Shown here: in pieces, positions 12,823-57,170 of the stretch
Numbering within the stretch: position 1 is the first letter of the stretch
How the letters are laid out: each line of letters opens with the position of its first letter
Assembly (NCBI GenBank): GCA_903813345.2
Contig: CAIIXF020000007.1
Span: forward strand, 9,305,730-9,369,729
Direction: 5' to 3'
From: Owenia fusiformis
Taxonomy: Eukaryota; Annelida; Polychaeta; Sabellida; Oweniidae
DNA: 64,000 bases
Notes under the pieces: model-generated
What the model was told of the DNA's origin: nothing
Seen by the model: only the letters and a program-made list of their open reading frames with translations
Databases searched by the model: none
Made by a program: the position numbers and the translations under genes

Positions 12823-13192
12823 ATGGCGACAATGATTGTCCGAACTTGTTTGCTGATGTTGGTCGGAACACATGGAAATCCAGATATTGATTTCAAATCA
12901 ATTAAGTTTAACATTAATCAACAACTTTCAATTTCTCACACGTTTAATCTTACATCATTTCCCAACTTTAGCAGATACACGGATGATAATCAAGATAGAT
13001 TAAAACAGAACGATTTGGATATCTTACACAATATACAAGCACAAACTCTTAAAATCTCAAATACACTTGGGAACTACATTCCATCAGTTTATGCCACCAA
13101 ATCCACTCGTGGACAAGAGCCAAAGTCTCTCCATGGATCCGGGCGGGATAGTTACTTTATACATCCTATCAGAGAAAAAAGGCATACACCTG
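12823..13192 (+). CDS. Gene A exon 1: signal peptide and propeptide with furin-like site
   Basis: The ATG at 12823 opens MATMIVRTCLLMLVGTHGNP, a signal peptide of about 18 residues. An upstream in-frame codon at 12754 is not preferred, because the gene B paralogue aligns at this Met (STMA in both). About 95 polar residues follow, including a block shared with gene B (SNTLGNYIPS). The exon ends with IREKRHTPG, where REKR fits the furin consensus RXKR. The mature protein would then start with the Ig domains. The donor is TG|GTGAGT at 13193, phase 1. Confidence 0.83.
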
Positions 13193-16100
13193 GTGAGTAA
13201 TGAGATTATTTTGGTTCTAAATAAGTTGATCTAAAAGTTGGACCACGAGGGCCCAGTAGCGCATGGCTCGAAAATAGCCATCAAAGTAAACAAAACGTTT
13301 TTGATATATTTATGAAAAGCGTCCAGTAGTGGCGATCTGATTCTGATGCCAAAATGATTGACATTCCTGATTTCCTTCGAGGTACCCTACCCTCTACAAA
13401 TCCTTTCGAAACCCTGTTAGTGAGCGAATGAATGTGTGGAGTCGGTTCTATTGATGTGCATGTACAAGCGAAACTTTATCGTTTGAGATGTAACGGCAAT
13501 TAATACAATTCCGAATTTAGAACTTTAGTATTCACTGGTGATCCACTCGAACAGATAGTTCAGAAAACAACGGAATCGTCGATTTAATCTCACTTAAAAA
13601 GAAGTTAAGATCTGCACTTTTAACCGTTTATGTAACTTAAGTGAGGAATTAAATCGACGATTCTGTTATCTTCTGAGCTATTTTTTCGCAAACATGTACC
13701 TTTTATAAAAGATATGATACTGCTACACGTTTGTGAGAAAAAATGTCGTGGGGATTCTGCCTACAACGAGCGAAATAAGCAAAAAACAAAAATCGTACCT
13801 TCGACGTTCCGACATTTTGTTACCGAAACGATCGAACCGTTTTGGTAACCAGCGTAATCGAGCGGATCACCAGTGGAATTCGCATATCATGATCGTATAA
13901 CTAAATGGGGAATAAACCCAAGTGTGATTTAAACGTTGCAAATAGACTTCATGTTTTAACATTCAGCTTGTTTATCCAAGGGAAACAATGCAAGGCATTA
14001 ATTTTCAATAAATGTGATACCGTTTGACTCCCCTCAAATTAATAGGTGAATCTTAATATATCTAACTCTCAATTCAAAGCTGATCTCTACAACTTATCGC
14101 ACTTCCCTTACGGTTACAAAAATATCATCGAGGGTGATACGTTTTCCCTGAGAGACTTGAGTAACTGAGAAGTCATTAAAATTAGGACGTTTGTAACAAA
14201 TCACAGGCGCTGACATTTTGCATGCTAATGCCTTGTTTTTCTTATTATGCCCCGTGCTACTTCTCAAAACGAATAACCTTAAAGCAAACTATTTATTTGG
14301 GTACTCGGGGCATGCACCAGGAAGAGAGGAAATTTTGCTGGTAGTTCATAAGTTTCCAGTAAAATCGTGGATTATTTTTGTAAAAAGCGAAATAAAATCT
14401 TGGCCAATGTGCCATTATATCAATATATTACTCATGAATTTTTTTCTTTGGAGTGCAAGTACATTTTACAAAACATTTTCATTCAAATTCTGTTCATTCA
14501 GCCATTTGTCTTTATTTCTCGTTATTGTTTGGGTTTGATTTTTTGTCACGTCGGTGAGAAAATAATACATAATTATCCCACCAAACTAAGTTCGAGGGAA
14601 TATAGAAAATCCGATCGTTCGTTCGTTCGTCCGTTCGTTTGTCTCGGCAATAACTCAAATGTCGATTGGCGGATTTATATTTTATAGGCTTAAATGCTTT
14701 ATTGGCGTTGGACCTCTGCTCGAAAATGAGTTTTTAATGTGGCCGTTCAATTTAAATTGGCCGCCATTTTCGAAGATATTTTCAAGATGTCCACCAAAGT
14801 ACAAAATGGCCATCATTTTTCGTAAAAATGTCATATTTTGATGGATTTGGCTCATATTTTATATGTTAATGCTGGGCAAAGGAGCTCTGCTCAAAAATAA
14901 ATTCTCAAGATGGCAGCTGGATTTCAAAATGGCCGCTATTTTTGTAAAAAAATATAATCTCTTATAACTTCTAGTGGACGGATTCGGTTGAAATTTCATA
15001 TGCTGATAATTAGGGACAATGAGCTCTGTTCAAGAAGAAATTTTCAAGATGTCCGCTATTTATCAAAACATAATTTGTTTGTTGTTTTTGGATTCTACAT
15101 TAAGAAAACATTTTTTGGTGATTGAATCCAAACAGAAATTCCATTGTTATACCTCCAAAATTGACATTGGCGACCATTACATTTTTAGAGAATTTTGTCG
15201 AGACTCATTGGTAAAACAAGGAACATAACCTTAAATCCTATTGCAAATTGGAGCGACACTATACAAGTAATAGCTCCATAAAGGATTTTTCCTGGAGAAA
15301 AATGGCTGTCATTTTGAAAATAGTTGAATTAGTGGTCATAGGATTTTATCTTGATAATGCAACTTATAACAGGAAAAAACGAGCCACTATTGTTGACAGA
15401 CAGACGGACACCTCGTCTTGTTGTCGTTGTAAATTACATTTAACGCTATGTTACTTCCAGTTTCGAAACTTATGGAGGGGGGGGGTGTCGCCATTCGTAC
15501 TAATTGGAAATGTTTCATTAATTATTATAAATACATACATGTACTTTGTTATCAATTTATTTAGAGGCACACGATAGAGTGAGTGTTGTTGGCGGAGAAC
15601 TAGAGACTGTGATTCTGGAGTGTCCAGTTGATCCAAATAAAGTCCAAGATGTTAGGTGGTTTAAAGATCTTCTTACATTTGGGGTAACACAATTAACACT
15701 GAATGCTAATATTACTGCGAGTGCAGGGCCATATGGCAAGTTTAAATATGAAGTGAATGGAAAATTTAGTCTTCAAGTTAAAGATGTCAACAAAGGGGAT
15801 GCTGGACGCTACTGGTGTATAAATGGAGATACTAATGAGACCATCCATGATGCATTCCTCATTATCCTGAGTAAGTTCATTGATTTTGCCGGGACCTGCT
15901 ATCGATTCTACTCTTACTATCCATCTTGTAAAAATGAATTGGTATTGCCTAAATATTAGATTACTCTCTCATTTTATGTCTGTTCTCCCTGATACCCAAC
16001 TGGCAAGAGTCAGATATTTCAGAATTAGTTAATAACAGTAACAGTACGTGAGCGTACAAGGCTCCAACTTATCCCAATATCTGTTTCCATATACGTTTAA

Positions 16101-19100
16101 TTTTACGTCTATATTTACCAGGAAATATGTCATAAATATTCAGAGAAGAACATCACTATGAAACATTGATACACTACCGTGAACATGTGGATCTACACTG
16201 GAAGTGTCGGATAAAAAAAAAGAATAATATTTTGATGACCATTACGTTAATATAGTCAAAGCGATGAACCCTAGTAAAGAACCCGTGAAAATGCATGAAT
16301 TCAACTACACTTACAAAAATGATCCATTTAAACGTGTTTTAAACCATATCCTTGGTCATTCATTACATATTAAAAATGTTCTTTGAGTATCAAATATGTG
16401 TTACAATACATATTACACAGAGTCATTGGCAGCAGCCAAATGTTGAGATGAGGTTCATCCTCAATCTCAACATTTATTTAATCAATAACACCAATTTCCC
16501 TTCTTTGTATTTTGGGAGACCCATTTTAGACAATTTAAAGAGAGCTGGAAATTGACAGCTCATTGGAATGTAGCATTCCTCATAATACAGAGTCGGTTCT
16601 ATCTGATTCTATTTTCATACCCTACGTTTTTTGTATATTTAGGAAAGGTGAAATGTCCAGAAACCCCACAACGAATTCTAAAAGGTCAAACTTTAGATTT
16701 AAAATGTGGCACAAACTTTTGGGGAGCTAGAGATGAATCTTACTTCCCAACAGTAAAATGGATTGATAATGGCAATCCTGTTACATCGAAAATTAGCATT
16801 GAAACAAACCAATCAACAGCAATATATACGTATACAGCAGATGACCTAGGGGCGTCTGTAGCTACGTGTTCCGTAAGCGTTACCCATGGTCTTCTTCAAG
16901 AGACAGAGCTATGCAAAATTGAATTTCAAGTTACAGGTATTAAACTAGTTTATGTAAAATGAGGCACATGTGTTTCAGTTAAGACTTTTTTCACATGCTA
17001 AGGGAATTTCAATGCGAGGCAGAGTGACCCCAAGAAGTTGACCCAATATTTCTGAAATAACATTTGTATATTATCCATAAGATCTTATATTCATTCTCTG
17101 CAAATGTTACTGAAAGTTGGTTTTATCATATTATAGATTATGCTGACAATATATGGGTATCAACAAACTCATCTACTATTGGCTCAGACATTTATACAAT
17201 AAAAGAGGGATTTTTGAGCAATCGGAAGCCAGTTTACACCAGCAATAGAGGTCTATACCTGTTCGCCATGTGCATTGATGGACAGGATATTTGGTACATT
17301 AGTAATACCTTTCCCCCTGATCCCGATGTGTATCTTGTAAAGACGGAAACAAGTGAAAACATTCCTGTTGGCATAACGACATCATGGTCAACTGCAGATG
17401 TCGCTCTTGTCGATGTTGACATACAGCCTTATTTATTTGGTAAGACTATTTTTGAAATTCTGACATGTTTTGAGTGTTAAGATTAGATTAATAGTTATCA
17501 TTACTAATATGATTTCTAAACTTTCAGATACGATACCATGCGATAGTGTTTTTGTGTCAGGACCGAACGATCCAAGTTTGCTGGGCCTTTATTTCTTATC
17601 AAATAAGTTTTCCAATGGTAGGCCTGTTTACACGCATGAACATGACAAAGGATATATCTACCACACATCTGAATACTGGTACATAGGGGAGGATATCAAT
17701 GATGTACCTGGTATCTATAGAGTTGCTTCTTTCGCTGGTACGCCATATACCATTACTGAAACATGGAATAGTACAACCGATATCAATGTGCAATGCCTGC
17801 AAGGTAATAGATTGCTTAAAAATATATGTCACTTTATTTGTTCAATCTACTGTTGCTGTGCAGTTTAGAAATATCATAAAGTAAAAATCTATGTTCACTG
17901 GGGACCAACCGGACACGATGACAGTTTATTACAGACATTTTACTTTGACTTCATTTGCCTTGCAAAATGAGGACATGCTAACTGGTTGGCCAATCTCACT
18001 GTCTAATATTCTAGAAATCATGTGCGCGAATAATACGTACCAAATTAAGCGCGACATTTGAACGCACGGGGTACAGTACAACACGGGGGTGATGCACTTT
18101 AAACAATCTGATGTTCCCGTCGTTTCAGAAAGACCTGTTCTAATTTCTAAATATTTTTATATGTGGCAATGATTTATTAATATCCTAGACAGTGAACTTC
18201 ACGGTGAATTTCATAGTTAAACCTACACAAACTCCAAAATGTAGTATACGGTATAACGCGCGGGTGAGAACGGTGTACGCAATTCCAATTCCTAATTGTA
18301 CCTAACCCCCCTATCACACCAAACTAGTTTTTACCCGTTTTTGCCAGTCCTACGAAAGTGTCGTAAAACAGGCTCAATCTGGCTGTGGTCGGGATATATG
18401 TCTAAAATTATTAGCTACTTCGTTCATAAACAGTCTTCAATACGTCCATCTCATTCGCAGTTCGTTCAGGTCGCACCACGTCGGTGTGCAACGTAGTATA
18501 TACCGACCCTTAGTCTAGAAGGTCATCATGACCTGATTACAGAACGGTATGGTCGCCATCGAATTTTGAATCGATTCAAAATTCTAAATCACCTACCCCG
18601 TCCGGGAAACTCCATGAAGTTCGTAAACAGACCGTAGGACGTTGTAGCTACGTTCATTCAGTTCGCACACAGTTTAAAACCGATTCGGCAACGTTTTGAC
18701 GATCACCAGAAAATTTTGAGCATGCTCTAAGTGCTGGAGGACCTACTCGTTCTAGTAGTTTCATGAAGTTTGTAAACAGCTCCCAAACGGTTCTTAGTGG
18801 GTTCTTAGTACGTCAAATCCGTTCGTGCACAGTTTAAGCCCGTTTTCGAGAACGTAGTGAGAACTAGTTTGGTGTGATAGTAGGGTTACCGTTACCACGC
18901 GTCATACCTTACACTACAATTTGAGATTGTGTAGGTTTAACTATGAAATTCACCATTAACTATGAAATTCTGATGATGTTTGAATTTTGAAAACCTTTAT
19001 AATTTTGACCAACTTATTCTATTTTTGAAGCAACAACGACATGTAGTAGTATTAGCCTGGCTGGTGTACGGACGCCGATCATTGAAAATATGTATGCTGG

Positions 19101-22100
19101 TCTGTATGAAGCAACTGGCACAATCAACAATCGCGCTTCCTACAAGCATAAAACTAAGGACTACTACGTTTATTTTGTTCCCATTGAATACTGGATCTTG
19201 GCTGATGCTCCCTATGGGGCTGTCATTGTCAACATACTTGCAAGATCAGCCTCAGTTCAAATAGATGTAACTACTATCATGGGGTGGAGATTTGACGATG
19301 GTTTTATTAACTCTGACGAAGAAGTTGCATCCTTCCAATGCAAACCATGTGAGACTTTTCTCTGAATCACTGTAAAACCAATCTCTTAATAAATATTCCG
19401 TTATTTATTTTAAGAATGATTGTAGAACGACGACTAAAGCATTTTTATGTGAATATACCTTTTATCTCATTTATAGCTACACCTTCATGTGACAAGCTTC
19501 ACTTGACAGCGGATATAGATCCAGATCAGCTGCCGTCACAGACGGAGTGGTTCGGTATCTACACTCTCACAAATGAAACATCAGATGGTCGTCCAGTGTA
19601 TACATTGGATGAACCCGGTGCCGTTCAGCGTACCGTAAAGCTGTACCACGTAACAACATCATTGTCAAGTTACTGGTTCCTAAGTGAATCAGTAGTTGAC
19701 ACAGAACCCTACATTCGGATAAGAGATGGTGCATTCTACCCAGAGTTGATTAATCCAGGCAGTTTGCGAGAGGAGTTGAATAATTCTACTTGGATCGAGA
19801 TGCCTACATTGAAATTTCTCTGCTTTAAAGGTTTTGACATTTTTTTATTTGCACTACTACTGGGGCAAACCAAATATTTCTTTAGCAACAACATTTTAGA
19901 TTTCAGATAATATGATAAAATAGTTTTGAAATGTTTAAAATCAATAAAGGTATGTTTTGTTTGCTGATGTTGCAGAACGAGATCCATGCAAGACCCTCTA
20001 TTTGGATTCAACGACTCACATGCCAGCAGGCGTACTAACATCTGGGGCAAACATATTTGGTTTTTGGATATTAAACGAAACACAGACATATAACAATCGA
20101 CCCGTATACCACCATGAATTATTTACTAGTCTATATCTATACAGAGTTCACCCTGTAAAATGGGTGATACGTTTTGACAACCCTGTAAATGTTCCTGTTG
20201 ACAGTCCGCCAAATAATACGCTTGGATTGATCACAGATCAAAGCATATATCCAGAAGATATAAAAGCTCCGATAAGTATCAATCTGACAGGAAGTCATAG
20301 CGAATGGCCTGGAGCAGCATTCTCATGTTTTTCTGGTAGAGAGTTTATACATATACATCATAAAATCCTGCCATATGTTTTACAACCATGACTTATCTTC
20401 TTCTAATAATAATGTACTCTAAAACCATAAAACGACATTTTTAATATTGTCAATTCTTTTAAAGTATTTTTATTTAGCAATACTTAAAAATCAATTACCC
20501 AACGAGAGGTTGGTATTATATCCAAATTGTTCACTTGGTCAATAGTGTGTGGTATTGTGCGGTATTCATAATTTCGACCAAATTAATGTCTCGAGTAAAT
20601 CATAACATATTCTTTTTCTCCCATTGGTCGACATTTCCTGTTTGGTCTATACTGATTTAATTCATAGAGCTAATGGAAAGTCATCAGATAAGAAAATATT
20701 AAAAGGTAGATTGGATCGAGTGAATTGGATTCATGTAAAAGGTGAATTGGATTTTTTTTAGACCTCGCTTTAAGAAGATTGGTGCTCTCCTCCCGTCCAC
20801 AATGTCAAATAATTGATGTAGTATTATTTTGTCGCTTGGATGGGCTAGACGGGTGACATGTTACACACTTTCTGATGTACAATCTTATTTATTCCAAGAG
20901 TGATTTTAGGCAATTATTAGGCAAACGAAGAGTCAGATCATCTGTTTTCGATCCAAACGGAACATAGCAGAAATGTTTTGGGAACATCCACAGCACAGTC
21001 AATTTGAATGGTAGCCTTTATATACAGACCTATGTTTATTATACCTTACATATGGTTCAGTGGGGCAGTGAATAGCAGGTTAAAAGTACCAAAGGGAAAA
21101 TTGGTTGGCATTAATATATTGTTATGTTGTCATCATGCATAATACATATATCAAGGCCACACCTCTGGTGCCATCGTGTGCTTTTGATTTACCTTGCTAG
21201 CAATTGATTTCAACGCTTGGTACAATATAGTCCTATTGTATAGATCAATTTATTTGCGTTTTTTAACTCATCATCAAGTATGTGCATAAAACAGCACACG
21301 TGGTAGAAAACAGACACATTTCTTCAAAAAATTAAAGTTTCGATGAGGAAATACTTGTGACACTTGACGTGTTTTGAATAGATTTATTTTGAAGGGAAGG
21401 AATTTAGTGACAGATATCTATTAGTATTCAAATACACAAATGAATTTACTTGAATACCTAATCTGTTCAGTATTATATGATTCCATATTTTGCAGAATCA
21501 CAATCCAATCCACATTTTACATGGATCGAATCTATCCGATCCAATCCACCTTTTAATCTTGACCATCAGATTATGACATATACTTATAATCGTTCATATT
21601 GGGAAATATCAGATTAATAATAATTTAGTAGAGATCTTACCACATTAAACTTCTAACTATCAAATGCAAATTGCACATTGTCGTTTATGATAGTACTATT
21701 AATTTTGTTATTTTGTTCTTTTCTTAGTTTCAAGAGCCTGTAATGAGTTAAGTATCAGTGGAATCAGTACTGATTCACAATTGGTAATCTTCAACGGTCT
21801 TTACACAAAGAAAGATTCAGAGTACAATTATCGTCCCTACTATGAGCACCATGAATCTTCGGGTAATCAACGGTTACTGGTATTTCGTTGGAGCTACTGG
21901 AACTCTCCTCCAGCTGCTACGTGGCAACTGTTGTTTCATGGTGGTTTGGCAAATTATGTATACGAATTTATCTATGACCCACTTAACATTCGGTTTGATT
22001 GGGCAGATCAGCCGACTATGGAAATAGTTTGTGTAGATGGTAAGCACTTTATAATCTGAAATCAATCGGTCTAATAGCTATACATAAATAAAAATGTTAG

Positions 22101-23634
22101 TATATTTAAGCTGATAAGGCGACCTTTAATTTACCATATTCAGTGATATTTATAATAGTATTTTATTATAGTATTGCAATGAAGCCATCATATCGATAAT
22201 TGTCAAACGTATGCATTTGCAGAACTCTCCGTGGTCAATGCTACACAACCAAAGCTAGTTGTGAAAACTACAGAATGTAAGTAGGCTGTAATTACCTCGA
22301 GTGTTTTTTGCATTGTTTATACCTTTAAAGTAAATGGCTGAATGGCAAAAACCTGATTATTTCGTTATGATTCTAGATTGTCGTGAGCTATACTTATCTG
22401 GCAAGTATGGGACTGTCGATTATACTCCGAACGCTATCCGTTGGTATGGTTACTATTTCCTCAACAATGAAACGGACGAGAGCCCAGTTTATATTCACGA
22501 GTCTGACATGAGAGCTCTGAAACACGGTGCGAACGATACCTGGGAAATTGCAATGGTAGACAACCTCGCAGGAAGCACGGGGGAGCTATCAGTCATTGAT
22601 GCAGCTATATCTCCAGATTTGATACAAAGTGTTCTCTGGAATGATGGAACTCAAGATGTCATCTCTAAAATGACATGCGTTAACTGTAAGTGTTTAGACT
22701 AGACTAAGACATGTCGATCTTTTAGAACGGAACAAGTAGATCTGTTCCATATATTATAATAGGTGATATATGTTAAACCTAGTTTAATGGTCTCGTTAAA
22801 TGTTTATTTTTTAGACATAGACGAATATCTGTGTACAATGATGCTCCTTGATGACATATCTGATGAGGGATTTACGTACCTGCGCGGTCTTTACACAACT
22901 ACTGATACGAAACGACTCAACCATAGACCTGTGTATCAATGGACAGGGGCAATTCCTGGAGGGCCACAACCAAATACTAACCAAGAATCGTTGTATCTAT
23001 ATTTCTTGTCCGCTACATCAGAATGGGTAATTGACACTACACTAGAAGACGAGGAGGATGGCGTTATCTGTAAAGTGGTTGATCCGGTGGATGATCCAAC
23101 ACTCATATCAAGAAAATGGAACTGTCTCGATACTGCTACGAATACCACAGTTCCCGTTGAGCTGATTCAGTTTGTCTATCACAATGGAGGTATATTGAGC
23201 CGGAAATTGTTCTAAAAAGGAAAAGCAAGCCTAATACTGTTTAATTAAGTCTATAAACCTACTCTTACTATTGACAATGGCGTAGCCTCATATACACATG
23301 ACGTACTCTCAAATTGAGAGAAACGGTTTTTTTTATATATATATTTAGCACTATTTAGCACGCTACGCCACTGTTTGAGAATAAATTCTAGCAATATTGT
23401 TCCACATGTATGTACTTGTTGAGAATCGAACTCAAGTTGATTGGATCTCAACAAGTAGAGTCATGTGGAATAGAATTGGTAGAACCCATTTTCAATAGTA
23501 AGAATAGGGGTTCTTAAACGGGACATTTAAGCTGAACTAAGGCATTTTGAAAAAAATTTACACACTGCTATTACCTCTATTTCATTCAGTATTATTAGCT
23601 CACATGGTGAGCTTTTGCAATCACTCACTTGTCC

Positions 23635-23677
<43 letters not shown>

Positions 23678-31730: not shown

Positions 31731-31758
31731 GTTAATAAGAAAAGTAACATGATAGATA

Positions 31759-31764
31759 AATAAA
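31759..31764 (+). promoter_or_regulatory. Possible polyadenylation signal of gene A
   Basis: AATAAA lies 29 nt after the gene A stop codon, directly followed by A-rich sequence. Further AATAAA words occur near 32024, so the true 3' end is uncertain. Confidence 0.4.
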
Positions 31765-32772
31765 AAAAAAATAAAAAAAAGACTGGGGTAAGAATGACAT
31801 ATTATAATACTTGAATTATGAAATCAATATCAATGTATAAAATTATATATATATGGACCATCTACATATTGGTTTAACTGTTATATTTTTGCTACATCTG
31901 AACAGACGGATTATCTTATATTGAAACATTGATAATATGTGATATTGTATGTAGACGCACCTTACGTTATAAATAAGATAATTGAGTGCTGCTTTTTGAA
32001 AAGCATATGTCTAAATAATAAGAATAAAATAGTGTTAATAAATGTACAATCAAATATTTCACAATTTCTTATAATAATTAGCTTTTTTATAAATTCATCT
32101 ACATTACTTAAAATACAGTAATGTATGACTATAGCTTAATGGTATTTTGATCTAATTACAAATAGTTTTGCTATTGTAATGCTACATTTTGTTTAGGGTT
32201 TAATTAGAAAATATTAAACCCTTACTGAAGTTAACAAACAATGAGGGTTTCCTTAATTTGCAGTGATATTTGTGGACGTATTCAGCTTACATTTCAGAAT
32301 CATAACTAAGCTATACCCTATAAAGAAAATCAAAGAATGATAAAAGAAGTGATGGCAAAAAAAGATTTTCTGTCACTGTAATTAGGATTTAAGTCTAGAC
32401 TTTACCTGCTAACCTGCGGTAATGTTTCCCTTTATATACCAACCGGCATTGTTGTTTTGGAAACTGAAAATACCTTAATTTATAGACAAGACATCTCACT
32501 TTCACTGAAAGGCATTCGCTTGTTATTTTACAAAAAAAGAATTTACAATTCACCGAGCATGACATTCGCTCCAATGTAATTTAGACTTTGTTAAAAACAA
32601 TTTTATCTGATGGAGATATTCAGTGATGAGCCCTTTTATTAATAAAATAGGAAAATCCTTTTATCCTTGTGAAAGTTCATATGTCACATAGGGTGTGGAT
32701 GATACCGATGGATACCTGGAGATCAGTAGCATGTGTGTAAGTTCGCGGATGAACTGCGTGGCATTATCCACG
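31765..32772. other. Intergenic region between receptor genes A and B
   Basis: About 1 kb, very AT-rich, with no recognisable gene or element. The right end should hold the gene B promoter. GGGTGTGGATGATAC at 32690 is shared with the gene A upstream region. Confidence 0.5.
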
Positions 32773-45100: not shown

Positions 45101-48100
45101 TAACAACCGGCTTACACTGACGTTTGGGTGGCAATGGGCGCAGGATTCTTCCCGAAGATTGATTCCTGCATGGCAACTGTATTATAATGTACAACTCGCA
45201 AACTATGTATACGAAGTTGTTGTCGACCCAGTCAACATTCGATTCAATTGGACATACACACCAATGATGAAAATAACTTGTGTTGATGGTAAGTGCATCT
45301 ACTAGCAATGTGAAAGGTATGATGGCCCAACATAGCCATTTGAAAACAGTTTGTAAAAATATCAAAATAGATTGGTCCATTGTAGATTTTGGAGGACCTT
45401 TATTAAGTGTATTGTAAGTTTACATGTAGTTTATAGGCACTTTTGGCGGATTTTTTGACAGAGGCTCTTAACACTGTAAAATCCTAATGTTTCGACATCG
45501 AATTCTTTTCAAGTTTCTGCATCAAATCAACAACAAAACGACAGCAAAGTCGGTGTATGTTTTAGTTGAAAACAGTTCAGATTATTTATTTTATTCATTT
45601 TTCATATTATTCATTAACAGCTCACATACTCGATCTTACTTGACGGGACGGAACAAGTCATACACCCTTTTTCCTGATAACTTTTTCAATTCTCAATAAT
45701 TTTTCATGAAATTTTCACTAGATAAGCATTTCTAACATACGAAATATTTATTTTAACTCATTATCAAACTCGTTTTAATTATAGCTTTTCAAAACTGATG
45801 GCAATATTCTGATAAGATGCCAGTTTTGCGTCTTTTGTTAGGAAATGATAAAATAAAATATCATATTTTTCTCTTTTGAATAAGTATCGTCTTTATTCCA
45901 ATCAAAATCATATTTTCTCCATATATGATTTCTCAACATGTGACATAAACAGTTTCATTTGTTACCCTATTTAAATAGGGTCTGCCCATTGGTCTTACTT
46001 CTAATGCAAATTGAATTTAAACTCGATAATTTCTCCTATGTCTGCCTTGGATAGCTGTTAGACAGACAGTATGTCCCATGTTTTACTCGATTTAAACATC
46101 ATATCAAATAACTTGAATTGAATATGTCTCATTTGTTATATTTGATACAAGCTTAATTTAGGGATTGCATCTTGAATTCTGATCTACCATGTGGCATCAA
46201 TAATACATACTTTCCGTTCAAGAGATACACTTTGGCTACATAAAGATATTAGGGCAAGAAATTGAAATATTTTAGGTAAAATGGTAAGGAGCAGACAGAT
46301 ATTAGATTGCACAACTATCCCTTAAGAAAAAAGCCATGGTAACCATGGTATTCCATGGTGCGCCCATGGTAATCCATGGTTTTCCATGGAAATTCATGGT
46401 TTTCCATGTTATTTTCCATGGAAATTCATGGACGCCCATGGTAATCTTCCATGGATATTTACCATGATTTTCCGTGGTAATTGTTGGTTTGGTAATTGGT
46501 TTTTAATGGATGTGTCATGGAGATGTAAAATCAACAATTTTGGTAGGATTTGTATTTACCAAAATCTCCAAAATGAATGTTTTGATGATATATCCCAGTT
46601 AGACTGAGACTTATCATTGAGAAAAAAGGGTGGACATTTCATTTTGAAGGTATAGCAAGAACATTCATTGAATGTTAGACTCAGCTTACAAATGAGAAAA
46701 TATGTGAAACAGCAGAGCAGAGAGTAGGCCACAAGATTTCAAAAACAATTGTGCAAAGGTCTTTTGTGTAGATCAAGACTAGATAGAGATTGCTTATTTT
46801 TTAGGCCAAACACTTCTTTCCTTTGAAAAAGATTAAGTCAAACTAGCCCAAGCTCTGTTTTATTTCAATACTTTCTTTAATTTTCAGTTTTAAAAATCAA
46901 TATGAAGTAATTTAAGAAATAAATAACTCATTTTCTTAAATTACATTTCGTACATTTGAGAATACAATCAAAAACCATGGTTTCTTTCTTTGAAGTTGAG
47001 AAAACTGCAATCAAAAGCCATGGAAGACGGTTGATTGCAATCGAAAGCCATGCTTTTCCATGGTTATTTCTTTGATGTTTTGGAAAGTGCAATCAAAAGC
47101 CATGGTTTTCCATGATTATTCTTTTGATCTTTTGAAAGTCCATGGTTTTCCATGGGCTATTTGTTTGGTCTTTTGGAAGCAGAAAAATGAATAATACATT
47201 ATGTTTCTAAATGAACTTCTCCAAATTAAGTCCCATTCAACTTTTATAAGCGTATTATCTGAAAAAATCCACAGAAAAGTATATACTTTTACAGAATTTT
47301 GACATGAAATTGAGATGGGGGATTAAACACAAGCCTATGGCTGCAAACTGAAATGTTATACCTAAGTGATAAATATTCAATTTGTCTATGTAAGAATATT
47401 ATATTTAAAAAGAAGTTGCATGAAGGAAGGGGAGGGGGTTAACAACACCATTTGGCTTAAAACATGAAACATAGTATAAGTAATTAAAATTGATTTGTCT
47501 TTGAATAGGAATAAATAATCAATTGCATTATTTTTAAATATTTGGTTGCCATTATTCTATGTTAATTAGGTGTCTTAACTCTCAAATTAATGTCAAAAGA
47601 TAAATCTCTTTACAACAGATTATAAGAGTTCATTTGCATAATTCTTAAATATTCTGATCTAATTGTTATTATATATGATAATCTTACTCTTTCTAATGCT
47701 CCCTCTTCAGTAATTATTATTGTCTGTGAGTGTAGACAGTGCAAGTCAAAAACTCATTGTTGATCAAATAAAACCAAATAGGATTTACTCCAAGTAAAAA
47801 TGTTTATTCAGTCTGCAATAAGGGAATCCAGTGAGCTGATTTTGTCACTTATTTTGTCTTTTTTTACATAAGTGCCAAAGTTAAATGATAGCAAATCCCA
47901 GCAAACAAATTATTACTTTTAATTGTGGGGTCAAATCAGCAATTAAAAAAATATTAAGTAAACAGTTCTTTGTCATATGACACTATGTACAGAATGTACT
48001 AAACATATATTCAGATTGTAAAAACATGGTTGTATTTCAGGCCTGAAACCAGCTTTTGTCAAGAAGGTTGACTTTCTCAAAGATTTTGGGGTGGGGGGGG

Positions 48101-51100
48101 TGTCATATTATTTTATTTATGATTAATGAGACTAATTCTCAATCCAGCTTGGATTCATTCGTTAAAATATTGATTCAATTTTGAAGATTTTGGTAAAAAC
48201 AAAACCTGCCAAAATTGTTGATTTTACAACTCAAGTGTCATGGTAAAAACATGGCATGTTCATGAAAAAACAATTACCAAACCACCAATTAACACGGAAA
48301 ATCATGGTAAATATCCATGGAAGATTACCATGGGTATCCATGAATTTCCATGGAAAATACCATGAAAAACCATGAATTTCCATGGAAAACCATGGATTAC
48401 CATGGACGCACCATGGAATACCATGGTTACCATGGCTTTTTTCTTAAGGGATCTTTAATTGATTATACAGAATTTATATCATTCTATTATTCCATTTTTA
48501 ACTAATAAATTATGTGAAATACATGAGTGAAAATGCATGTACATACACTCCCCTCCATAAGCTTGGCAACCTTTTTTCCCCCATTGAACTACGTGTTAAA
48601 GCCTCTTTACCTTTGAATTTATATTTACTTTACTTTACTTATTTAACCGGCGATGAAATAACAATGGAAACGTAACTTGACTTTATTTCCAATCCTTCCA
48701 AATTTTCTCAATTTTTTCCTCAATTACAATAGGTCGAAAATTGATGATAAATTTGATGAATTTTTTTGAAAATCGTCATTCCCATGTAATCCAATGGGAA
48801 ATGAAGGGTTCGGGGCAAATCAGAAATCAGGATATCTTTTCAGTAAAAGATTCAGCAAAAAATATTTTTATATAGAAAATTGAATTGTCTTACTTTTTTG
48901 AACACTAATTGTTTAGTTTATTTGATGAATATTAAAGTCACAGCGCTTCAAAGTCATTTTTGAAAATAATTTTTCGCCTCCTGTGTTATTTCAATGGGAG
49001 AGGTTTTTTGAAAAACAATTTTGACTTTAAAGCCCTATAACTTGGTTGAACCTGAAGAAACATATCAATTTTTTAAAGTTAGCAAATTCAATTGCCTGCC
49101 TAACTCGTATTTTTTGCAAGGACTCGGACGGATGGATATTCTGTCATATGACTTGCGGCAAACCTACCATTTCGCATTGGTTAACATGGGAATGTCGATT
49201 TTCAAAAATTCATCAAATTTATCATCAATTTACGACCTATTGTAATTGAGGGAAAAAATTGAGAAAATTTGGAGGTATTGGAATTAAAGTCAAATTACGT
49301 TTCCATCAATAGTATAAGTATTTTCATCGCAGGTTAACTTTTATATACCTCCTGGTGTCAGTATTTATAATCTATTCTTTTTCTATATAACTTTTTCTAA
49401 ATAAATAAGTATTATTTTCTTACAGAACTGATCGTGAATGTTACGGGCCAAGATAGAGACAAATATGCTGCATTTTTGTCGAATAGTTAGTACTTATTTT
49501 TCCTTGATATCAATTTGTTTTTACAAAAAACGAACGTTAACGTATCATGATCATGTGTTTTTGGATAAAAATCATAAGATTGAATTCAGGATACATGTCG
49601 TTATTCTTTACACCATATATGCACTGTTATTAATGTTCTAGATTGTCATACGCTCTACTTATCTGGCGAGTATTGGGCTGTCGATTATACCCGAAACGCT
49701 ATCCGTTGGTATGGTTACTATTTCCTCAAAAATGACTCAGATGTAAGCCCAGTTTACACTCACGAGTCTACGATGAGAGCTCTGAAGCGTGGTGCAAATA
49801 ACACCTGGGAGATCACGAAGGTTGAAGACCACACAGGAGAAACGAGGGAGCTATCAGTCATTGACGCAGCTCGATCTCCAGATTTAATACAAAATGTTCT
49901 TTATAATGATGGGACTGAAAATGTTGTTTCTAGGATAATTTGCGTTCCCTGTGAGTTCTACTGTATTTAAATTAAACGTATATTGCAACTATAAAAAATG
50001 ACAAACTGGACGTATTATCTAAAAGCTCTTGTACTTCTTGGTTGAAGATTCTTCCATGCTAAAAAGTCTGCATTGTGAAGTCCAGTTATTTGTTTTATCA
50101 TACTACTATATTTATGTATATTTTACATTATTTCTCTAGACATCGATGAATATACATGTGCCACATTACTTCTCGATGACGTATCTGACGAGAGATTTGC
50201 ATACTTAAACGGAATCTACACCACCACGGATACTACACGGCTCAATCACAGACCTGTATACCAATGGACCAGAGATATAAATGGAGACACGTCCGACCAG
50301 GAATCGTTATTTCTGTATTTTTTGTCCAGTACATCAGAATGGGTGATTGGCACTACACTAGGAGACGAAGAGGATGGCGTTATTTGTAAAGTGGTTGATC
50401 CTGTCGATGATCCAACGCTCATATCAAGAAAATGGAACTGTTTCGATACTGCTACGAATTCTACAGTTCCTGTTGAGCAGTTGCAGTTCCTTTATCATGA
50501 TGGAGGTACTTATATTCATACATCACATTTCATTATCAAATCCAGTCCCTAGAGTTTGTTCAAATTCATACTACGACAAATATATCTATATTAGGTCCAA
50601 AAAATGGGACATTCGTATTTCAAAAATAAATATTGTTTTTCTTGATGAAAACATGTCATATTATATACCAGTGGATGGGGTATGGTATTTACTTATCTTT
50701 AATTTGGTATATCATAAATTCAAAAATATTTGTCAACCAGCGTCCATAATATAAATTACATCATTTTAGTTCTCAAACGGGTTTTCCAAAACTTGCAAAA
50801 CCAAGTTTTTTATCAACTTTATTTACACAAACAGACGTTCAATATGTCGACATTTTGATCAATTATAGCCCTCAATTTTGGCATAAACTGGTCAAAAACA
50901 CCATTGATGAGATTATGAATTCCATTTCTCAACAAGTCTATCCTTAACTAGATAAACAGCAACTCCACGGAGTAGCAAATCCCACCGACCAAAACATATT
51001 TTGATTATTGTTGGCCATCCTTAAAATTCCTTTTTGAGCATAGCTTGTTTGTCCCTATGAAAATGGTGGCCATTTTGAAATTCAGCCGCCATCTTTTAAA

Positions 51101-54100
51101 TTCTTTCTTGAAGAAATTTAATTTATCCCTAGGCATCATCATATAAAATGTTAACCAACTCCGTTCACTGGTATTTGAGTTATCAAAGATTACGTTTTTA
51201 CGAAAAATGGCCGCCATTTTGATATTAAGCAGCCATTTTTAAAATCTCCTCTAAAATCTCCTCTAAAGCATAGCTCCTTTGTTCCTAAGCATCAGCACAT
51301 AACATTTGAATCAAATCTGTCAACTAGTGTTTGAGTTGTCAAAGATTATGTTTTTTTTTACATAAAATGGCCGCCATTTTGAAATTTCTTGAACAAATCT
51401 ATTTTGTCCCTAGGCTTCAGCATTTAAAATTTGAACCAAATGGTCGCCATTTTTATATTTAGCAGCCATTTTGAAAATCTCTTCAACGGCATACCTCCAT
51501 TATCCCTAAGCATCAGCATATAAAATTTGAACCGAATACGTTCAATAGTATTCGAGTTATCAAAGATTATATTATTTACGAATTGAATTTAGCGGCCATA
51601 TTGAAAATTCCTTATCGAACAGAGGTTCTACCCCCGTAAGGCATAAGCCTTTAAAATTAGAATTAAATCTGTCAACTGGTATTTGAGTTATCGCCCGGTA
51701 AAAACAGACGATCGTACGGACGGACCGCTTTCCTATATCCCCCTCGAACTTCGTTCGGTGGGATAATAAGGGACTGACTGATGAGATGTGAGGGGTTCAT
51801 GGTAAACCAATTATGTAAGTTATTCGAATACGTGGTAGTCGCAGACATTGACATCACATTATCCAATTATGTTGTTTTAGACCATCCTGATATGAGCTCA
51901 TTCTCGAATCATTACATTTTCCAACAAGATTGGGCGCCAAGCAATATATCTCACAAGAGTGTCAAATGTTTAAGGAAAAATGTGCTTAGATTCATTCCGC
52001 CTAATCACTGCCTCCCTCAGATCACCCAATCACCAAACCCCAACGTCAGCTACTACCACGTATTGGGAGAACTAAAGAATTGGTGTACCATGAGGTCATT
52101 CTCGAATCATTACATTTTCCAACAAGATGGGGCTCCAAGCAATATATCTCACAAGAGTGTCAAATGTTTAAGGGAAAATATGCTTAGATTCATTCCATCT
52201 AATCACTGCCTCCCCCTGATTACCCGATCACCCAACGTCAGCTTCTACCACGTATTGGGAGAACTAAAGAATTGGTGTACCATGAGCTCATTCTCGAATC
52301 ATTACATTTATATATCTCACTGGAGTGTCAAATGTTTAAGGGAAAATGTGCTTAGATTTACTAGGCCTAATCGCTGCCTCCTCCAGATTACCTTATCACC
52401 CAACGTCAGCTACTATCACATATTGGGAGAACTAAAGAATTGGTGTAACAGGAATCCTTTACATCTATCCAGTCTCTTAAGGACATAATTCAATTATTGA
52501 GAAGTGAAATTAATTGTCTCAACAGCATATCAATGATGCTATTGGCCAGCTTAGACCAAAATTGAGGGCTACAATTGATCAAAATGGTGGACAAATTGAA
52601 CGGCGTCTGTTTATGCAAATAAAGCTGACAATAAAACTTAGTTTTTGCAAGTTTTGGAAAACCCATTCTAAACGAAAATGACGTAATTTATATTATGGAC
52701 GCTGGTTGACAGATATTATAATAAATTTGAACTTATGATATACCAAATTAAAGATAAGTGAATTCCTCATCCACTGGTATATAATATGACATGTTTTCAT
52801 CAAAATATTAATATTTGTTTTTGAAGTACGAGTGTCCCATTTTTTGACCACATTGTATACACTTATGTATGTCTCTAACAAAAACGAACATTTCTTAGAT
52901 TTCCCAGATACATCTACCGTCCTATCAACAGAGTCCATAATAATGACAACAGAGATGGCCACTGATGTAACCAGTCAACCAACAGATAGATGGACAACTG
53001 ACTTTTATGAAGCAGGATTAGGTTTGCGATTAATCTTGATCATTTCGTGTTTATACCAACAATAATGTTAACATTATATTACTTTTATTAGACCAGTTTA
53101 TCTTATATTATTTTTTATTAAATCATGAAGTTAAGAGACACAATATAATATGATATGCAAGAGCATAGTACAGATCACTTTTAAAACGCATTGGCTGCCC
53201 AGTGTTCTTTGAAGAAATTATGTTTGACAAACACTGTCTCTTTTTGAACATTGCAGTGCCTCAGGTTTTGGTTATTACTTGACTGTTCTTTTTTGTTACT
53301 TATTCATTCAATTTTATAATTGCAATTACTTGTTTTTATCAAGCATTTTACAAAAAATTATAACTAGGGGTGGAGAATACCATACTACTAGCCGTCAACA
53401 ATGAAATACATCAAAATGTATTTCCTCAAAACTGGTGGTGGTGCTTTAACCTCATTAAATTATATTTATTCCAAAATTGAATGACGAATTGCGTGAGTAT
53501 ACAGAACTAATAATCCAAACATTCCAGTTGGATATTAAACGGACAATTCGGTAAGTAACATTACATTTATTTAAAATTAAGAGATTGTGTGTTATTCTGT
53601 GTGAGTATATGTGTGAGGGTATGAGTGTTTGAATACCTTTGATACATTAAACGTGTGAACTTGATAATTACATATGAATGTATGCTTACCCTATGTATGC
53701 TTATTCTTTTCTATAGGCATGAGTATTATTGCATTTTATTCATTTCAGTGTATATTTTAGGACTTGGGGTGTCTGGCTGCGTTATTTAAAATGCATCTGT
53801 GCTCTTTTATATTTGAGTGATGCATGATATAATGCGAGACAATCTACGGTCATCATATCCAGCATATATATTGTATATATAAATGTATTGTCATACCTTT
53901 AGTAATTAGGGGGTTGTCCCATTGTTTAATTATATAATTAATCTATCATACATATATATAAGTAATCTATTTTCATTAGAATATAATTTAAGATCAAAAG
54001 TACTAGTTAAGTATCGTAATGATATCGTAATTAATTTGAATGCTATTTTATATATTCACTTTAGTTGCATATTTTAGCATTGGTATTGTTGACAACCTGG

Positions 54101-54487
54101 GGCGTAAGTGTACCATAACATTATGTAATGCATTTTGATACTTCAAATTGCAAATGATTAACAAAACTTTGAAGTTCCCTATACAGTATATACTTTGTTA
54201 TAGTTTAAAGAGAACATTGATCAGCATTTGCTTATCATAAGATATCCAGCAATAATTCACACCTCCCCGATCATTTATGAAAAATTGTTTCTATTCCGTG
54301 CATCCCGATATTCATATTTTAAGAGTGTGATCTTATACATTTCCTCTTTTTGTAGAGTCGAAAACAATGGCGCTGAAGATACAGCAGCAGTTCACATCAC
54401 ATAACTCCATGACGGAGCCAGAGAATGGATCACATCCATTCTCACATCGCCGCGTATTCACGAATATACAGTTCAGTATACGTTCAG
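32773..54487 (+). CDS. Receptor gene B: tandem paralogue of gene A, 3' end not found
   Basis: Exons supported by splice signals, phase and homology to gene A are 32773-33139, 41215-41520, 41957-42259, 42374-42676, 42775-43050, 43352-43672, 43792-44145, 44277-44624, 44971-45288, 49426-49485, 49642-49950, 50140-50505, 52899-53021 and 54356-54487. All are phase 1; joined they give about 1295 codons. The order (signal and propeptide, two Ig-like domains, modules 1-6, linker, modules 7-8, stalk) is identical to gene A, and several exons have the same length (306, 303, 276, 354 and 309 nt). No frameshift or internal stop was seen, so it looks functional to this point. A transmembrane exon like that of gene A was not found before the SLC5 gene at 57171. 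Gene B may therefore be secreted, use a diverged last exon, or be 3'-truncated. Confidence 0.8.
33960..34720 (+). repeat. Two clusters of dispersed AAATCGGGA words
   Basis: From about 33965 to 34195 and again from about 34556 to 34720 the sequence repeats AAATCGGGA-like words, nearly all in the same orientation and spaced irregularly at about 12-35 bp, separated by A/T runs. About 360 bp of plain AT-rich sequence lies between. It is in gene B intron 1, upstream of the LINE. Minus-strand open frames (PDF repeats) are a by-product. Confidence 0.65.
35079..35312 (+). repeat. LINE 5' UTR tandem units
   Basis: Two copies of a unit of about 125 bp start CGCCATTTTTTCC (about 35085) and CGCCATTTGACG (about 35214). 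They share GTGTATWAYT, TGAACACTTAGT and GCTGAWAA...TTATACAT. Their position directly upstream of ORF1 suggests promoter monomers, as in other LINEs with repeated 5' UTRs. Confidence 0.6.
35419..37314 (+). CDS. LINE ORF1 protein, 631 aa
   Basis: Retrotransposon ORF1 proteins bind element RNA and form the RNP. Here there is an acidic N-terminus (residues 1-60), a basic patch (PSRKNKQTS) and a region from about 185 to 290 predicted as a long coiled coil (EINELKAEIAKSTKSKVKEL and onward). A Ser/Thr/Pro-rich linker follows with repeated CSA words (about 345-440). A C-terminal folded region, from about residue 500 (TKKIVLAHVKSQ) to about 585 (VSHFEYE), is possibly an RRM-like nucleic-acid-binding domain. 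No CCHC zinc knuckle is seen. The frame is uninterrupted. The stop overlaps the ORF2 start. Confidence 0.8.
   Translation: MPLSTKVHVPADIEIDDDSTNDSDNCMESTSGDFLSDYDDFNPTPIATQTENDIINEIKELCSGADKALFIKRLCDHQDVDGLVHSRDALFDYARINRSNAMPPGALIRRLPSRKNKQTSTSVKEKLACDIYHLFHFINGASNLSDIKTLLNPKAKTNRKSVVHNPIDDTMRHKNSDDQLAIILKNVLELKSNVATEINELKAEIAKSTKSKVKELNNVIEIKQNELNRCKDSEQKLKNDLKIAKAKINDQQTDINKLTTDINETKTKLLKQIQTIQNKVSALEKSSSRSVAITMNQEQLPSSNNDNVQDRSRSLSGPPNTSGSLNNTSAVPTSVWGIPLNPPTVPTGANKCSASSTKDISNVPATPITLSASSTCSAPTATCTSAVKTNSGAVTCSASDVSIECSASHTPTMSQAATSKNTSIARNIPVRCSAPKSTYLSNARDTATRTTSSAGTDRTSTDIRQSQMWPHRQAITKANLDADNASCNSDDDFVGVRVRRTRTKKIVLAHVKSQPYNTLRKHLVNYALKGGVTVTGFKVMSRKTSFNGEWLLIRVNVLASHYAKALNEHFWPTLIESRPYVSHFEYEQKRTQNAQEGDSQYYNKGNISQSDEDWDNDQYQDDLYQGSMYCL
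37311..40835 (+). CDS. LINE ORF2: AP-type endonuclease and reverse transcriptase, about 1174 aa
   Basis: The N-terminal endonuclease shows TWNCKG, LTEHW, GDFNGH (about residue 169), CVDYLFVP and SDHHP (about 254), the catalytic series of APE-type endonucleases. The reverse transcriptase has LFKGKGKDP and NFRGLTL, AFLDNQKAYD (about 653), QGVGQGRVSSALWF and the catalytic VADD (about 753). VADD differs from the usual [FY]ADD in its first residue, but both aspartates are intact. A C-terminal Cys/His motif (CKRCKDF...HFMKC) lies near residue 1085. The enzyme nicks target DNA and copies its own RNA there. The first ATG (37311) overlaps the ORF1 stop; a second Met at 37359 is another possible start. 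Confidence 0.9.
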   Translation: MNLSLYLILHIFIYITMSLNDKSLSVMTWNCKGIMYGSPFLTNILPNYHIVTLTEHWLYPDNLSFLNTLDLNYDSHGISQKDLSVDDAVRRGHGGIAILYNKSLIVRNKISIEDRICGIEIVTEGNCSLFIFAVYMPSANHPINEYIDWIDHLYSLYCTYSSLGTIMFTGDFNGHLGSKSGPRCDLANDRGLLLEKWVFDSNLLAVNAQNLTTGPKHTFFRNNASSCVDYLFVPTNKFDIIEQCRVIDDHPHNVSDHHPVIMNVNMSLPLSLIDYSCEARNIPRWRKATFTQKQLFSNDVKTQLSQITSTADFTTISGLDSAVRALADTLVNASSKHIPRSRFRKYLKPFWNKGDLKILHAEMRTARVAWIQAGRPRGLDHDSFLKYKLKKRHFRRHMRKLKLEYENEQILQFQTAAECDSALFYKMLNSHKAKGRKPCGHELRLGTEIIRDPDQIRELWACHFETLGTELSMPHFDDNFKNLIDHEHPYLMTQSLSNNDGIFENPITVSEIEQSIATFSNNKSPGYDLVTIEHLKYSSSDVLHFLNKVFNAMISMCKVPQSFKIGIMISLFKGKGKDPMDRDNFRGLTLTSCIFKVWERIFTNRTIPILKLQGCPHNLQFAYQEGACSQFAVFVLKELIQFYSERESLLYIAFLDNQKAYDLLWRKGLFHKLFNLGLNGKSWRLIVDSYENTTSRVLYNGKYSREFQITQGVGQGRVSSALWFLVYINALIEELCDTGLGAIIGDMRIPAVLVADDTTIIGTTPDELQKLLNSVSKYSSKWRMSYHSGQNSKSKIITFNESTKHFRDSQGMRMWHLQDDIVPETRTQCYAGNTLDAQLTDIEAMQQAKRKMLNIFYSIKPIGIGKGGINPLVAVKLLKTIVFPAAMFGCELWTTSNVELHALNVTIRKIAKIMQGFEQNVSSEVVLSTLGLLSIESYIDRAKVLFFDRLCRATHVFTKQLFLYRLSSFLVQKNEICNGLIKDVMSMEYDYVQESIQDFLRSGQLMTKVKFKMMCTNQIKLNEETKWRARVNADDSLSLFSNVQLSIEPSVLWTLGQKATEQLWELAHILYLTTPARFRLYQCKRCKDFTGSIVTHFMKCGELINEKNDFIENYIFNSLSVENCVKLLDMEENIVLETILGSRVDFQLDDTQFTEFILSCARGLAHIDIFFKSC
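41215..42259 (+). CDS. Gene B exons 2-3: two Ig-like domains
   Basis: Exon 2 (41215-41520) has LECPV, VSWFKD and DAGRYWC. Exon 3 (41957-42259) has LECG, IKWYKH and ATCTISV. Both keep the canonical Ig Cys and Trp residues and are very close to gene A; the second half of exon 2 (FSLQVKDVNKGDAGRYWC) is identical in protein. Exon 3 is three codons longer than in gene A. Confidence 0.85.
42374..50505 (+). CDS. Gene B exons 4-12: eight modules and linker
   Basis: The modules lie in exons 42374-42676, 42775-43050, 43352-43672, 43792-44145, 44277-44624, 44971-45288, 49642-49950 and 50140-50505, with a 20-residue linker exon at 49426-49485. The core motif appears as NRKPVY, NGRPLY, NNRASY, SDGRPVY, NNRPVY, VPRPSY, VSPVY and NHRPVY. 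The match to gene A is module-for-module, so the eight-module array predates the gene duplication. The linker exon uses donor ATA|GTTAGT and has diverged strongly. Confidence 0.8.
46319..48450. mobile_element. 2.1-kb fold-back element with CCATGG-rich arms, gene B intron 9
   Basis: Arms of about 190 bp (46319-46510 and 48255-48450) begin CCCTTAAGAAAAAAGCCATG and are made of many CCATGG or near-CCATGG words. They are complementary almost throughout. The interior has a second group of CCATGG repeats (46975-47160, GCAATCAAAAGCCATGG units) and no ORF. Flanks show no clear target duplication. Gene A intron 9 is only about 180 bp and lacks it. Confidence 0.8.
48647..49333. mobile_element. Inverted-repeat element with TTAA target duplication, gene B intron 9
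   Basis: The element is flanked by TTAA at 48643-48646 and 49334-49337. Its ends are CCGGCGATGAAA and the complement of CCTGCGATGAAAA, and arms of about 160 bp around TGGAAACGTAAYTTGACTTT are mirrored. TTAA duplication is the hallmark of piggyBac and Kolobok superfamilies. The open frames at 49021-49249 have no transposase motifs, so it is non-autonomous. Confidence 0.75.
51005..51765 (-). mobile_element. AAAATGGCCGCC-type repetitive element, copy 3
   Basis: It is the reverse orientation of the copy at 14565-15230. Its start (TATCCCACCGAACGAAGTTC on the - strand) lies near 51765. Repeated blocks of AAAATGGCCGCCATTTT follow. It is nested in the 50593-52849 element and has no coding capacity. 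Confidence 0.6.
51781..52488 (+). pseudogene. Open frame with three tandem transposase catalytic fragments, 235 codons
   Basis: Units of 198 and 192 nt (restarting at 51901, 52099 and 52291 at TTCTCGAATC) each encode FSNHYIFQQDGAPSNISHKS, then LRFIPPNHCLPQITQSPNVS, then YHVLGELKNWC. FQQDGAP is the block around the second catalytic Asp of Tc1/mariner transposases, and SPNVSYYH is a diverged form of the block that holds the third. Unit 3 has lost QQDGAP. The DNA-binding part and the first catalytic Asp are absent, so it cannot be an active transposase. All three units stay in one frame without stops. Confidence 0.65.
52899..54487 (+). CDS. Gene B exons 13-14: stalk region
   Basis: Exon 13 (52899-53021) encodes a Thr/Ser-rich stretch and shares its start (FPDTSTV against FPETTVI) and end with gene A exon 13. 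Exon 14 (54356-54487) is a 132-nt phase 1-1 open exon starting ESKTM, aligned by position with gene A exon 14 (ESTTM), but its later residues are not Thr-rich. No amplified stalk-exon array is present. Exon 14 is the less certain of the two. Confidence 0.55.
53022..54355 (+). other. Gene B intron 13
   Basis: AT-rich, with no stalk-type exon detected. A block at about 53790-53845 (GTGCTCTTTTATATTTGAGT) matches gene A intron 13 at about 26535-26590, showing that intron sequence as well as exons survives from the duplication. Confidence 0.55.
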
Positions 54488-57167: not shown

Positions 57168-57170
57168 AAA

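What the first reader, a model, noticed from the sequence alone, without database searches (positions are those of the whole stretch)
12823..54487. Tandem pair of large multi-domain receptors of an unrecognised architecture
Two adjacent genes encode the same order: signal peptide, furin-type propeptide, two Ig-like domains, eight copies of an unassigned module, and a Thr-rich stalk (plus a transmembrane helix and tail in gene A). Exon lengths and phases match one-to-one, so this is a tandem duplication of a whole receptor. I know of no named family with this order. Duplicated, module-rich Ig receptors in invertebrates are often recognition or immune molecules, but that role is inference.
Basis: partly seen in the sequence, partly recalled or inferred. 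Interest (0 to 1): 0.85.

Follow-up and report, generated by a model that had tools for sequence, protein, structure and literature searches.

The report
Tandem Ig receptors with unnamed modules
Two neighbouring animal genes encode large cell-surface or secreted proteins made of two immunoglobulin domains and eight copies of a module that the family libraries searched here do not name; a closely related eight-module array lies on another chromosome behind a different head, so recognition heads seem to have been swapped on a shared body.

Summary
Gene A (12823-31730) reads as 24 exons and 1,759 aa in one frame, all introns GT-AG and phase 1: signal/pro-segment ending REKR, two Ig domains, eight ~100-aa modules, a 407-aa Thr/Ser stalk with a tandem exon array, a transmembrane helix and a 130-aa tail with 12 tyrosines. 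Gene B (from 32773) matches through module 8 and the first stalk exon; no second transmembrane/tail exon was found, so its end is open.

The module gave no convincing Pfam, NCBIfam or PDB-sequence match. A confident AlphaFold model (pLDDT 89) had no PDB fold match but resembles giant-virus proteins. About 120 module-like places in 23 clusters occur in this genome.

Most likely modular recognition/adhesion proteins. Ligand, expression and an immune role are untested. New architecture of a known kind of molecule.

The parts
12823..13192 (+). gene A exon 1: signal peptide, pro-segment, REKR site
   Evidence: homologous to B exon 1 (1.2e-13)
15565..15870 (+). gene A Ig1
   Evidence: V-set 4e-6 on the exon alone; Ig_3 3.4e-9
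16643..16936 (+). gene A Ig2 (weak Ig match)
17137..17439 (+). gene A module 1
17528..17803 (+). gene A module 2 (structure predicted)
19031..19348 (+). gene A module 3
19477..19830 (+). gene A module 4
19976..20335 (+). gene A module 5
21728..22039 (+). gene A module 6
22377..22685 (+). gene A module 7
22815..23189 (+). gene A module 8
25176..25262 (+). gene A first stalk exon S1
   Evidence: donor ATTAG|GT also in B and C9
27199..27279 (+). gene A stalk exon S2
27558..30858 (+). gene A tandem stalk-exon array: ten phase-1 exons of 34-37 residues starting 27558, 27776, 27990, 28214, 28432, 28655, 28878, 30312, 30530, 30754
   Evidence: the last eight are 86-97% identical over 195 bases including intron, the first two 62-76%
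31249..31730 (+). gene A transmembrane helix and 130-aa tail, stop
   Evidence: single strong hit in the genome
32773..33139 (+). gene B exon 1: signal peptide, pro-segment, REKR site
41215..41520 (+). gene B Ig1
41957..42259 (+). gene B Ig2
42374..42676 (+). gene B module 1
42775..43050 (+). gene B module 2
43352..43672 (+). gene B module 3
43792..44145 (+). gene B module 4
44277..44624 (+). gene B module 5
44971..45288 (+). gene B module 6 (most diverged)
49642..49950 (+). gene B module 7
50140..50505 (+). gene B module 8
52899..53065 (+). gene B first stalk exon S1; donor after 53021, or read on to the stop at 53063-53065

Best explanation
A and B are members of a recent family of large modular extracellular recognition/adhesion proteins. 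A signal/pro exon carries an RxKR site where a furin-type protease probably removes the pro-segment. Two Ig domains form the outer head, the eight repeated beta modules form a long binding or spacer body, and a Thr/Ser-rich, probably O-glycosylated stalk holds it off the membrane. In A a transmembrane helix and a tyrosine-rich tail (two YxN motifs, the Grb2-SH2 type as I recall it) probably pass a signal inward; B is probably a secreted or differently anchored companion. All exons are symmetric phase 1, so heads, modules and stalk units can be gained, lost or swapped in frame, which the genome shows: the same eight-module order on C9 with sushi exons upstream, and exon-by-exon mosaicism among A, B and C9. 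Shown: exon structure, domain order, module family, the C9 array, the mosaic pattern, a single A tail. Inferred: cleavage, glycosylation, signalling, ligand binding, and that the C9 sushi exons are spliced to its modules.
For: Open 24-exon frame. One-to-one exons in B. Purifying average, dN/dS 0.30 A-B over the modules. C9 array of modules 1-8 in the same order; in the tree 7 of 8 positions group A, B and C9 together with support, position 2 unresolved. Five sushi-like ORFs upstream on C9 (the one tested is Sushi 1.5e-11), phase-1 borders as for module 1. REKR in both window genes although exon 1 is only 41% identical; RxKR first exons also at C7 13.69 Mb and twice on C4. Mosaic test and A-C9 intron stretches that still align at about 80%.
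Against: No transcripts: no junction is proven. Ig2 is a weak match. The A tail has no ITAM- or ITIM-like motif by the expressions used. No exon-1, Ig, stalk or tail homologue at the C9 locus pieces examined. Unequal rates could mimic part of the mosaic signal. Average dN/dS below 1 does not suggest an arms race, though it cannot exclude one at some sites. Modules also occur in genes with long Thr-rich stretches and EGF, so a mucin-like structural role is open.
Confidence: 0.6

Rival explanations
1. Mucin-like structural or barrier glycoproteins: the modules and Thr-rich stalks build a cuticle, tube or epithelial coat, and the Ig domains only mediate assembly. Recognition of non-self plays no part.
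For: Module genes in this genome carry long Thr-rich stretches (L001, L003, L004, L014); the second C9 array ends in a Thr-rich stretch, a SEA-like stretch (0.001, below the curated cut-off), EGF_CA (2e-9) and a hydrophobic stretch seen by eye.
Against: A has a 130-aa tail with 12 tyrosines, unusual for a purely structural coat; the Ig heads are private to A and B as a combination with modules in the search made.
Confidence: 0.25
2. Immune or self/non-self receptors in the strict sense: A is a polymorphic, pathogen- or allo-recognition receptor and B its decoy or secreted partner.
For: Ig heads, tandem genes, head exchange and exon mosaicism, tyrosine-rich tail, a stalk array whose last eight units are 86-97% identical and so young. 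This is a sub-case of the best explanation.
Against: No expression or population data; dN/dS 0.26-0.30 on average over modules; no ITAM/ITIM-like motif.
Confidence: 0.3
3. Neural or developmental adhesion receptors (contactin/Robo-like role) with a lineage-specific module body.
For: Ig2's weak PDB neighbours are contactins, neurofascin, Robo and MuSK (best 0.053).
Against: Those scores are not significant; no FN3 or kinase match was seen in the exons scanned; the family is recent and lineage-expanded.
Confidence: 0.12
4. Not two full genes: B is a decaying copy, or the exon chain is spurious.
For: B lacks a found transmembrane/tail exon, has a LINE in intron 1, and a diverged module 6 (48% to A).
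Against: All 11 shared exons of B are open with intact borders and constrained (dN/dS 0.35 over all shared exons).
Confidence: 0.08

Closest known systems
FREPs of snails (one or two IgSF domains plus a fibrinogen domain; PMC7588048, abstract and outline seen)
   Same: Ig domains at the head, joined to a second recognition-type domain, multigene in an invertebrate
   Different: No fibrinogen domain found in the exons scanned; here eight unnamed modules, a Thr/Ser stalk and, in A, a transmembrane tail. FREPs are secreted (recalled).
Hydractinia Alr allorecognition receptors (PMC3276163 and PMC11999971, search listing only; features recalled)
   Same: Tandem genes for transmembrane Ig-domain receptors in an invertebrate
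   Different: Alr ectodomains are V-set-like repeats; here one V-set-like and one weak Ig domain followed by eight unnamed modules; no ITAM/ITIM-like motif in the A tail by the expressions used
Membrane mucins with SEA-EGF-TM ends (recalled)
   Same: Thr-rich stalks; the second C9 array ends SEA-like / EGF_CA / hydrophobic stretch
   Different: A has neither SEA nor EGF in the exons found; its stalk is an array of short duplicated exons
Domain of giant viruses and other viral contigs with the motif VNGxY...NG(K/R)PxY
   Same: Predicted fold match to M2 (Clandestinovirus A0A8F8PN15, prob 1.00, TM 0.69, E 2.3e-3); the IMG/VR domain is predicted with seven strands in the same order; profile match 86% and 73%
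   Different: Viral forms lack the framing cysteines; the IMG/VR set was fetched by a motif, which biases the profile match; A0A8F8PN15 is not among the 50 shown rows for the IMG/VR model

Membership tests
Immunoglobulin superfamily | Ig fold with the Cys-Cys-Trp pattern | tested here: met
   Ig1 passes Pfam cut-offs in A and B; Ig2 only weak
FREP | C-terminal fibrinogen domain after Ig | tested here: not met
   No fibrinogen match for the exons scanned: 10 A stretches, 16 modules, both Ig heads
Alr-type immunoreceptor | ITAM or ITIM in the cytoplasmic tail | tested here: not met
   Regular expressions on the 130-aa tail found none; two YxN motifs only
Alr-type immunoreceptor | High allelic polymorphism governing fusion/rejection | not testable with these tools
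   One assembly only
Membrane mucin | SEA domain next to the membrane | tested here: not met
   For gene A: no SEA in the TM exon; a SEA-like stretch exists only at the C9 locus (0.001)
Any Pfam-A family for the module | Match over the curated cut-off | tested here: not met
   0 families for 16 window modules at E<=1; for 18 modules of A2 seven stray families, one member each, best Img2 0.0094; NCBIfam one stray, 0.057
Kelch-like repeat | Beta-propeller blade | tested here: inconclusive
   The viral-domain profile A3 hits designed SAKe proteins (8.5e-7 summed over six repeats, each repeat i-E 8.2 or worse); window-module profiles do not and Foldseek finds no PDB match for M2 (best E 3.9)

The most novel reading that the evidence does not exclude
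The module is an unnamed beta domain shared by giant viruses, other viruses and animals, amplified in this lineage to about 120 copies and used as the interchangeable body of a recognition repertoire: Ig or sushi heads are exchanged on the same eight-module body between chromosomes, with exon-wise conversion still going on, and A is its signalling receptor with B as soluble partner.
Probability: 0.25. Interest if true: 0.85.

Novelty: new variant of a known kind. Interest (0 to 1): 0.6.

Why it matters
If right, this is a recent, still readable case of receptor building by exon shuffling: introns of A and the C9 gene still align, heads differ, and the module has no entry in the libraries used here and no fold match in the PDB by Foldseek. 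It would give a name-worthy extracellular domain, and a system in which head-swapping, conversion between chromosomes and stalk-length change can be measured between individuals.

Tried and rejected
Kelch identity of the module: one significant profile hit that rests on six sub-threshold repeats of designed proteins; not accepted, not fully excluded. Stray PDB profile hits YxbC 0.21, IsdC 0.18: chance level. NGRPVYxHE pattern scans: 11 GTDB and 4 IMG/VR stretches; by HMM only weak hits (L028 0.0036 and 0.0012, L030 0.011) and the peptides are not modules: no prokaryote carrier shown, one motif only. tblastn in phage records: none for the viral domain, one non-significant for the animal module (0.6). 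PHROGs: one weak hit 0.013. Species: the COX1 family search found nothing in G000; size (498.3 Mb) and chromosome-size contigs numbered up to C12 are compatible with Owenia fusiformis (505.8 Mb, 12 scaffolds; passages of PMC9977687) but this is a guess. Literature for a named family: ('NGRPVY'), 87 returned none; one search listed three papers on other families (listing only). That is all the search for print there was. A counterpart of the A tail in B: none; hydrophobic open stretches downstream of B exist at 53643, 53668, 54574 and 55981 and were not followed.

Dropped rows:'s 53 rows 7 Ig-only rows were left out of the module count. The count merges starts within 150 bases; split exons (module 8 on C4) may count twice, and candidate lists are capped. 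A3 has 6 rows from 5 of the 8 contigs; L034 and L037 look alike but were left out, L036 does not look like the domain.
Full report
The window lies on contig C7 (9305730-9369729) of a 498-Mb animal-sized genome of 525 contigs. Gene A and gene B were rebuilt from stop-to-stop frames, A-versus-B tblastn and shared splice borders. The corrected join of A gives 24 exons and 1,759 residues with one terminal stop; all introns are GT-AG and phase 1. An earlier join with two wrong borders contained stops. The stalk exons were found under a phase-1 filter, so only the other exons test the phase claim freely.

Anatomy of A: exon 1 with a hydrophobic start and REKR near its end; Ig1 (clear), Ig2 (weak); modules M1-M8; a 407-residue stalk, 42% Thr+Ser; one transmembrane helix; a 130-residue tail with 12 Tyr, two YxN motifs and no ITAM/ITIM-like motif by regular expression; 26 sequons in the ectodomain. 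The stalk holds S1, S2 and ten short exons; the last eight units are 86-97% identical over 195 bases including intron, the first two only 62-76%.

Gene B has the same 11 exons up to M8 plus S1. Five of 11 lengths are identical, six differ by multiples of three. The S1 donor ATTAG|GT is the same in A, B and the C9 gene, which argues that S1 is spliced on; but no tail exon was found for B, and reading S1 on gives a stop and a 1,245-residue product. B's anchoring is unresolved.

The module: about 100 residues, one exon each, with a C at each end in most copies, G.Y, N.RPVY, YLY, W.I and a late W. Pfam gave nothing for the 16 window modules at E<=1 and only single stray hits for 18 wider modules, best 0.0094; NCBIfam one stray at 0.057; PDB sequence profiles best 0.21 and 0.18. 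AlphaFold2 on the 16 window modules gave pLDDT 89.2 and pTM 0.82, seven strands. Foldseek: PDB best E 3.9, i.e. no match; viral library best Clandestinovirus A0A8F8PN15, E 2.3e-3, prob 1.00, TM 0.69, then an Aureococcus virus calpain-like protein, prob 0.98, none at E<=0.001. A second structural library was not available, so a missed PDB relative is possible.

Spread outside animals: a motif scan of IMG/VR returned eight contigs. Among 630 open frames one (L033) matched the module HMMs, E 1.7e-4 and 2e-5. Six domain stretches from five contigs (A3) matched the animal profiles at 86% and 73%; both figures are helped by the motif used for fetching. Their model (pLDDT 87.4, pTM 0.78) has seven strands in the same order; its viral Foldseek list shares some targets with M2's (A0A5B8IHW8, A0A2P0VNZ8, A0A7U3MP12_2) but at low probability, and the best M2 target is not among the 50 rows shown of 259. 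I call the link probable, not proven. Against it: the A3 profile also hits designed Kelch-like proteins.

Spread in this genome: three single-sequence searches give about 120 distinct places in 23 clusters on eight contigs (lists capped, split exons may count twice). Companions seen: EGF (C11), long Thr-rich stretches, sushi (C9).

The C9 locus: modules M1-M8 in the same order. In a tree of 77 modules the A, B and C9 copies of positions 1, 3, 4, 5, 6, 7 and 8 group together with support; position 2 is unresolved; columns are few and some branches long. Upstream are five near-identical sushi-like frames, one tested (Sushi 1.5e-11), with phase-1 borders. Neither exon 1, Ig, S1 nor tail of A was found in the pieces fetched. 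Further down come modules of type 4, 5, 6, Thr-rich sequence, a SEA-like stretch (0.001, below cut-off), EGF_CA and a hydrophobic stretch; whether this is one gene or two is not known.

Mosaic: NG86 dS per exon between A and B runs from 0.197 (Ig1) to 1.307 (exon 1); over modules A-B is 0.585, A-C9 0.577, B-C9 0.842, dN/dS 0.30, 0.30, 0.26. Site counts for A=B, A=C9, B=C9 are heterogeneous among the eight modules (chi2 116.8, p 2.6e-18; third positions p 3.3e-7; without M6 p 2.2e-7). A is nearer B in M2 (59 v 16) and M4 (42 v 17), and M8 (46 v 27); nearer C9 in M3 (39 v 18), M5 (37 v 25), M6 (88 v 19); M1 and M7 are even. Flanking introns agree in part (downstream of M4 83% v 54%, upstream of M5 80% v 51% in favour of C9; upstream of M4 64% v 54% in favour of B), many others are near background. 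Conversion or exon exchange is the simplest reading; unequal rates cannot be wholly excluded.

First exons: a scan of 22 fetched loci plus the window for a signal-like start, RxKR and a phase-1 donor returned three places, B, C4 (L005) and C7 13.69 Mb (L007); it missed A, and a further C4 case (L006) was seen by eye in the frame list. The L005 exon lies before M7-like exons, between module clusters. The pro exon itself is found only in A and B by sequence; the Ig pair has ~30% relatives elsewhere, e.g. C181 and C4 9.646 Mb.

Verdict: a real pair of genes, an architecture for which I found no named family in the searches made, with an unnamed module. Recognition/adhesion is the best explanation; immune function is possible but unsupported by direct data.

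Noticed in passing
window 35374-40835: LINE with two open ORFs in intron 1 of gene B (RVT_1 9.4e-17, Exo_endo_phos 7.2e-10 in the second).
   Followed up: partly
window 57168-57554: Exon of a sodium:solute symporter-like gene just downstream (SSF 2.4e-4, slightly below cut-off).
   Followed up: no
window 26530-26584 and 53791-53845: 55-base block 87% identical at matching places 3' of A and B S1; the B frame has a stop, so probably non-coding.
   Followed up: no
G000 C12 18.49-18.74 Mb (L039, L040): Module hits with identical scores repeat at about 97 and 78 kb, suggesting large tandem segmental copies.
   Followed up: no
G000 C4 16.103-16.114 Mb (L005, L006): Modules of type 5-8 occur twice in tandem, module 8 split by an intron, with two mutually similar signal/pro/RxRR or RxKR exons.
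   Followed up: partly
G000 C181:19819 and C4:9646221: Single-exon two-Ig open frames about 30% identical to the A head.
   Followed up: no
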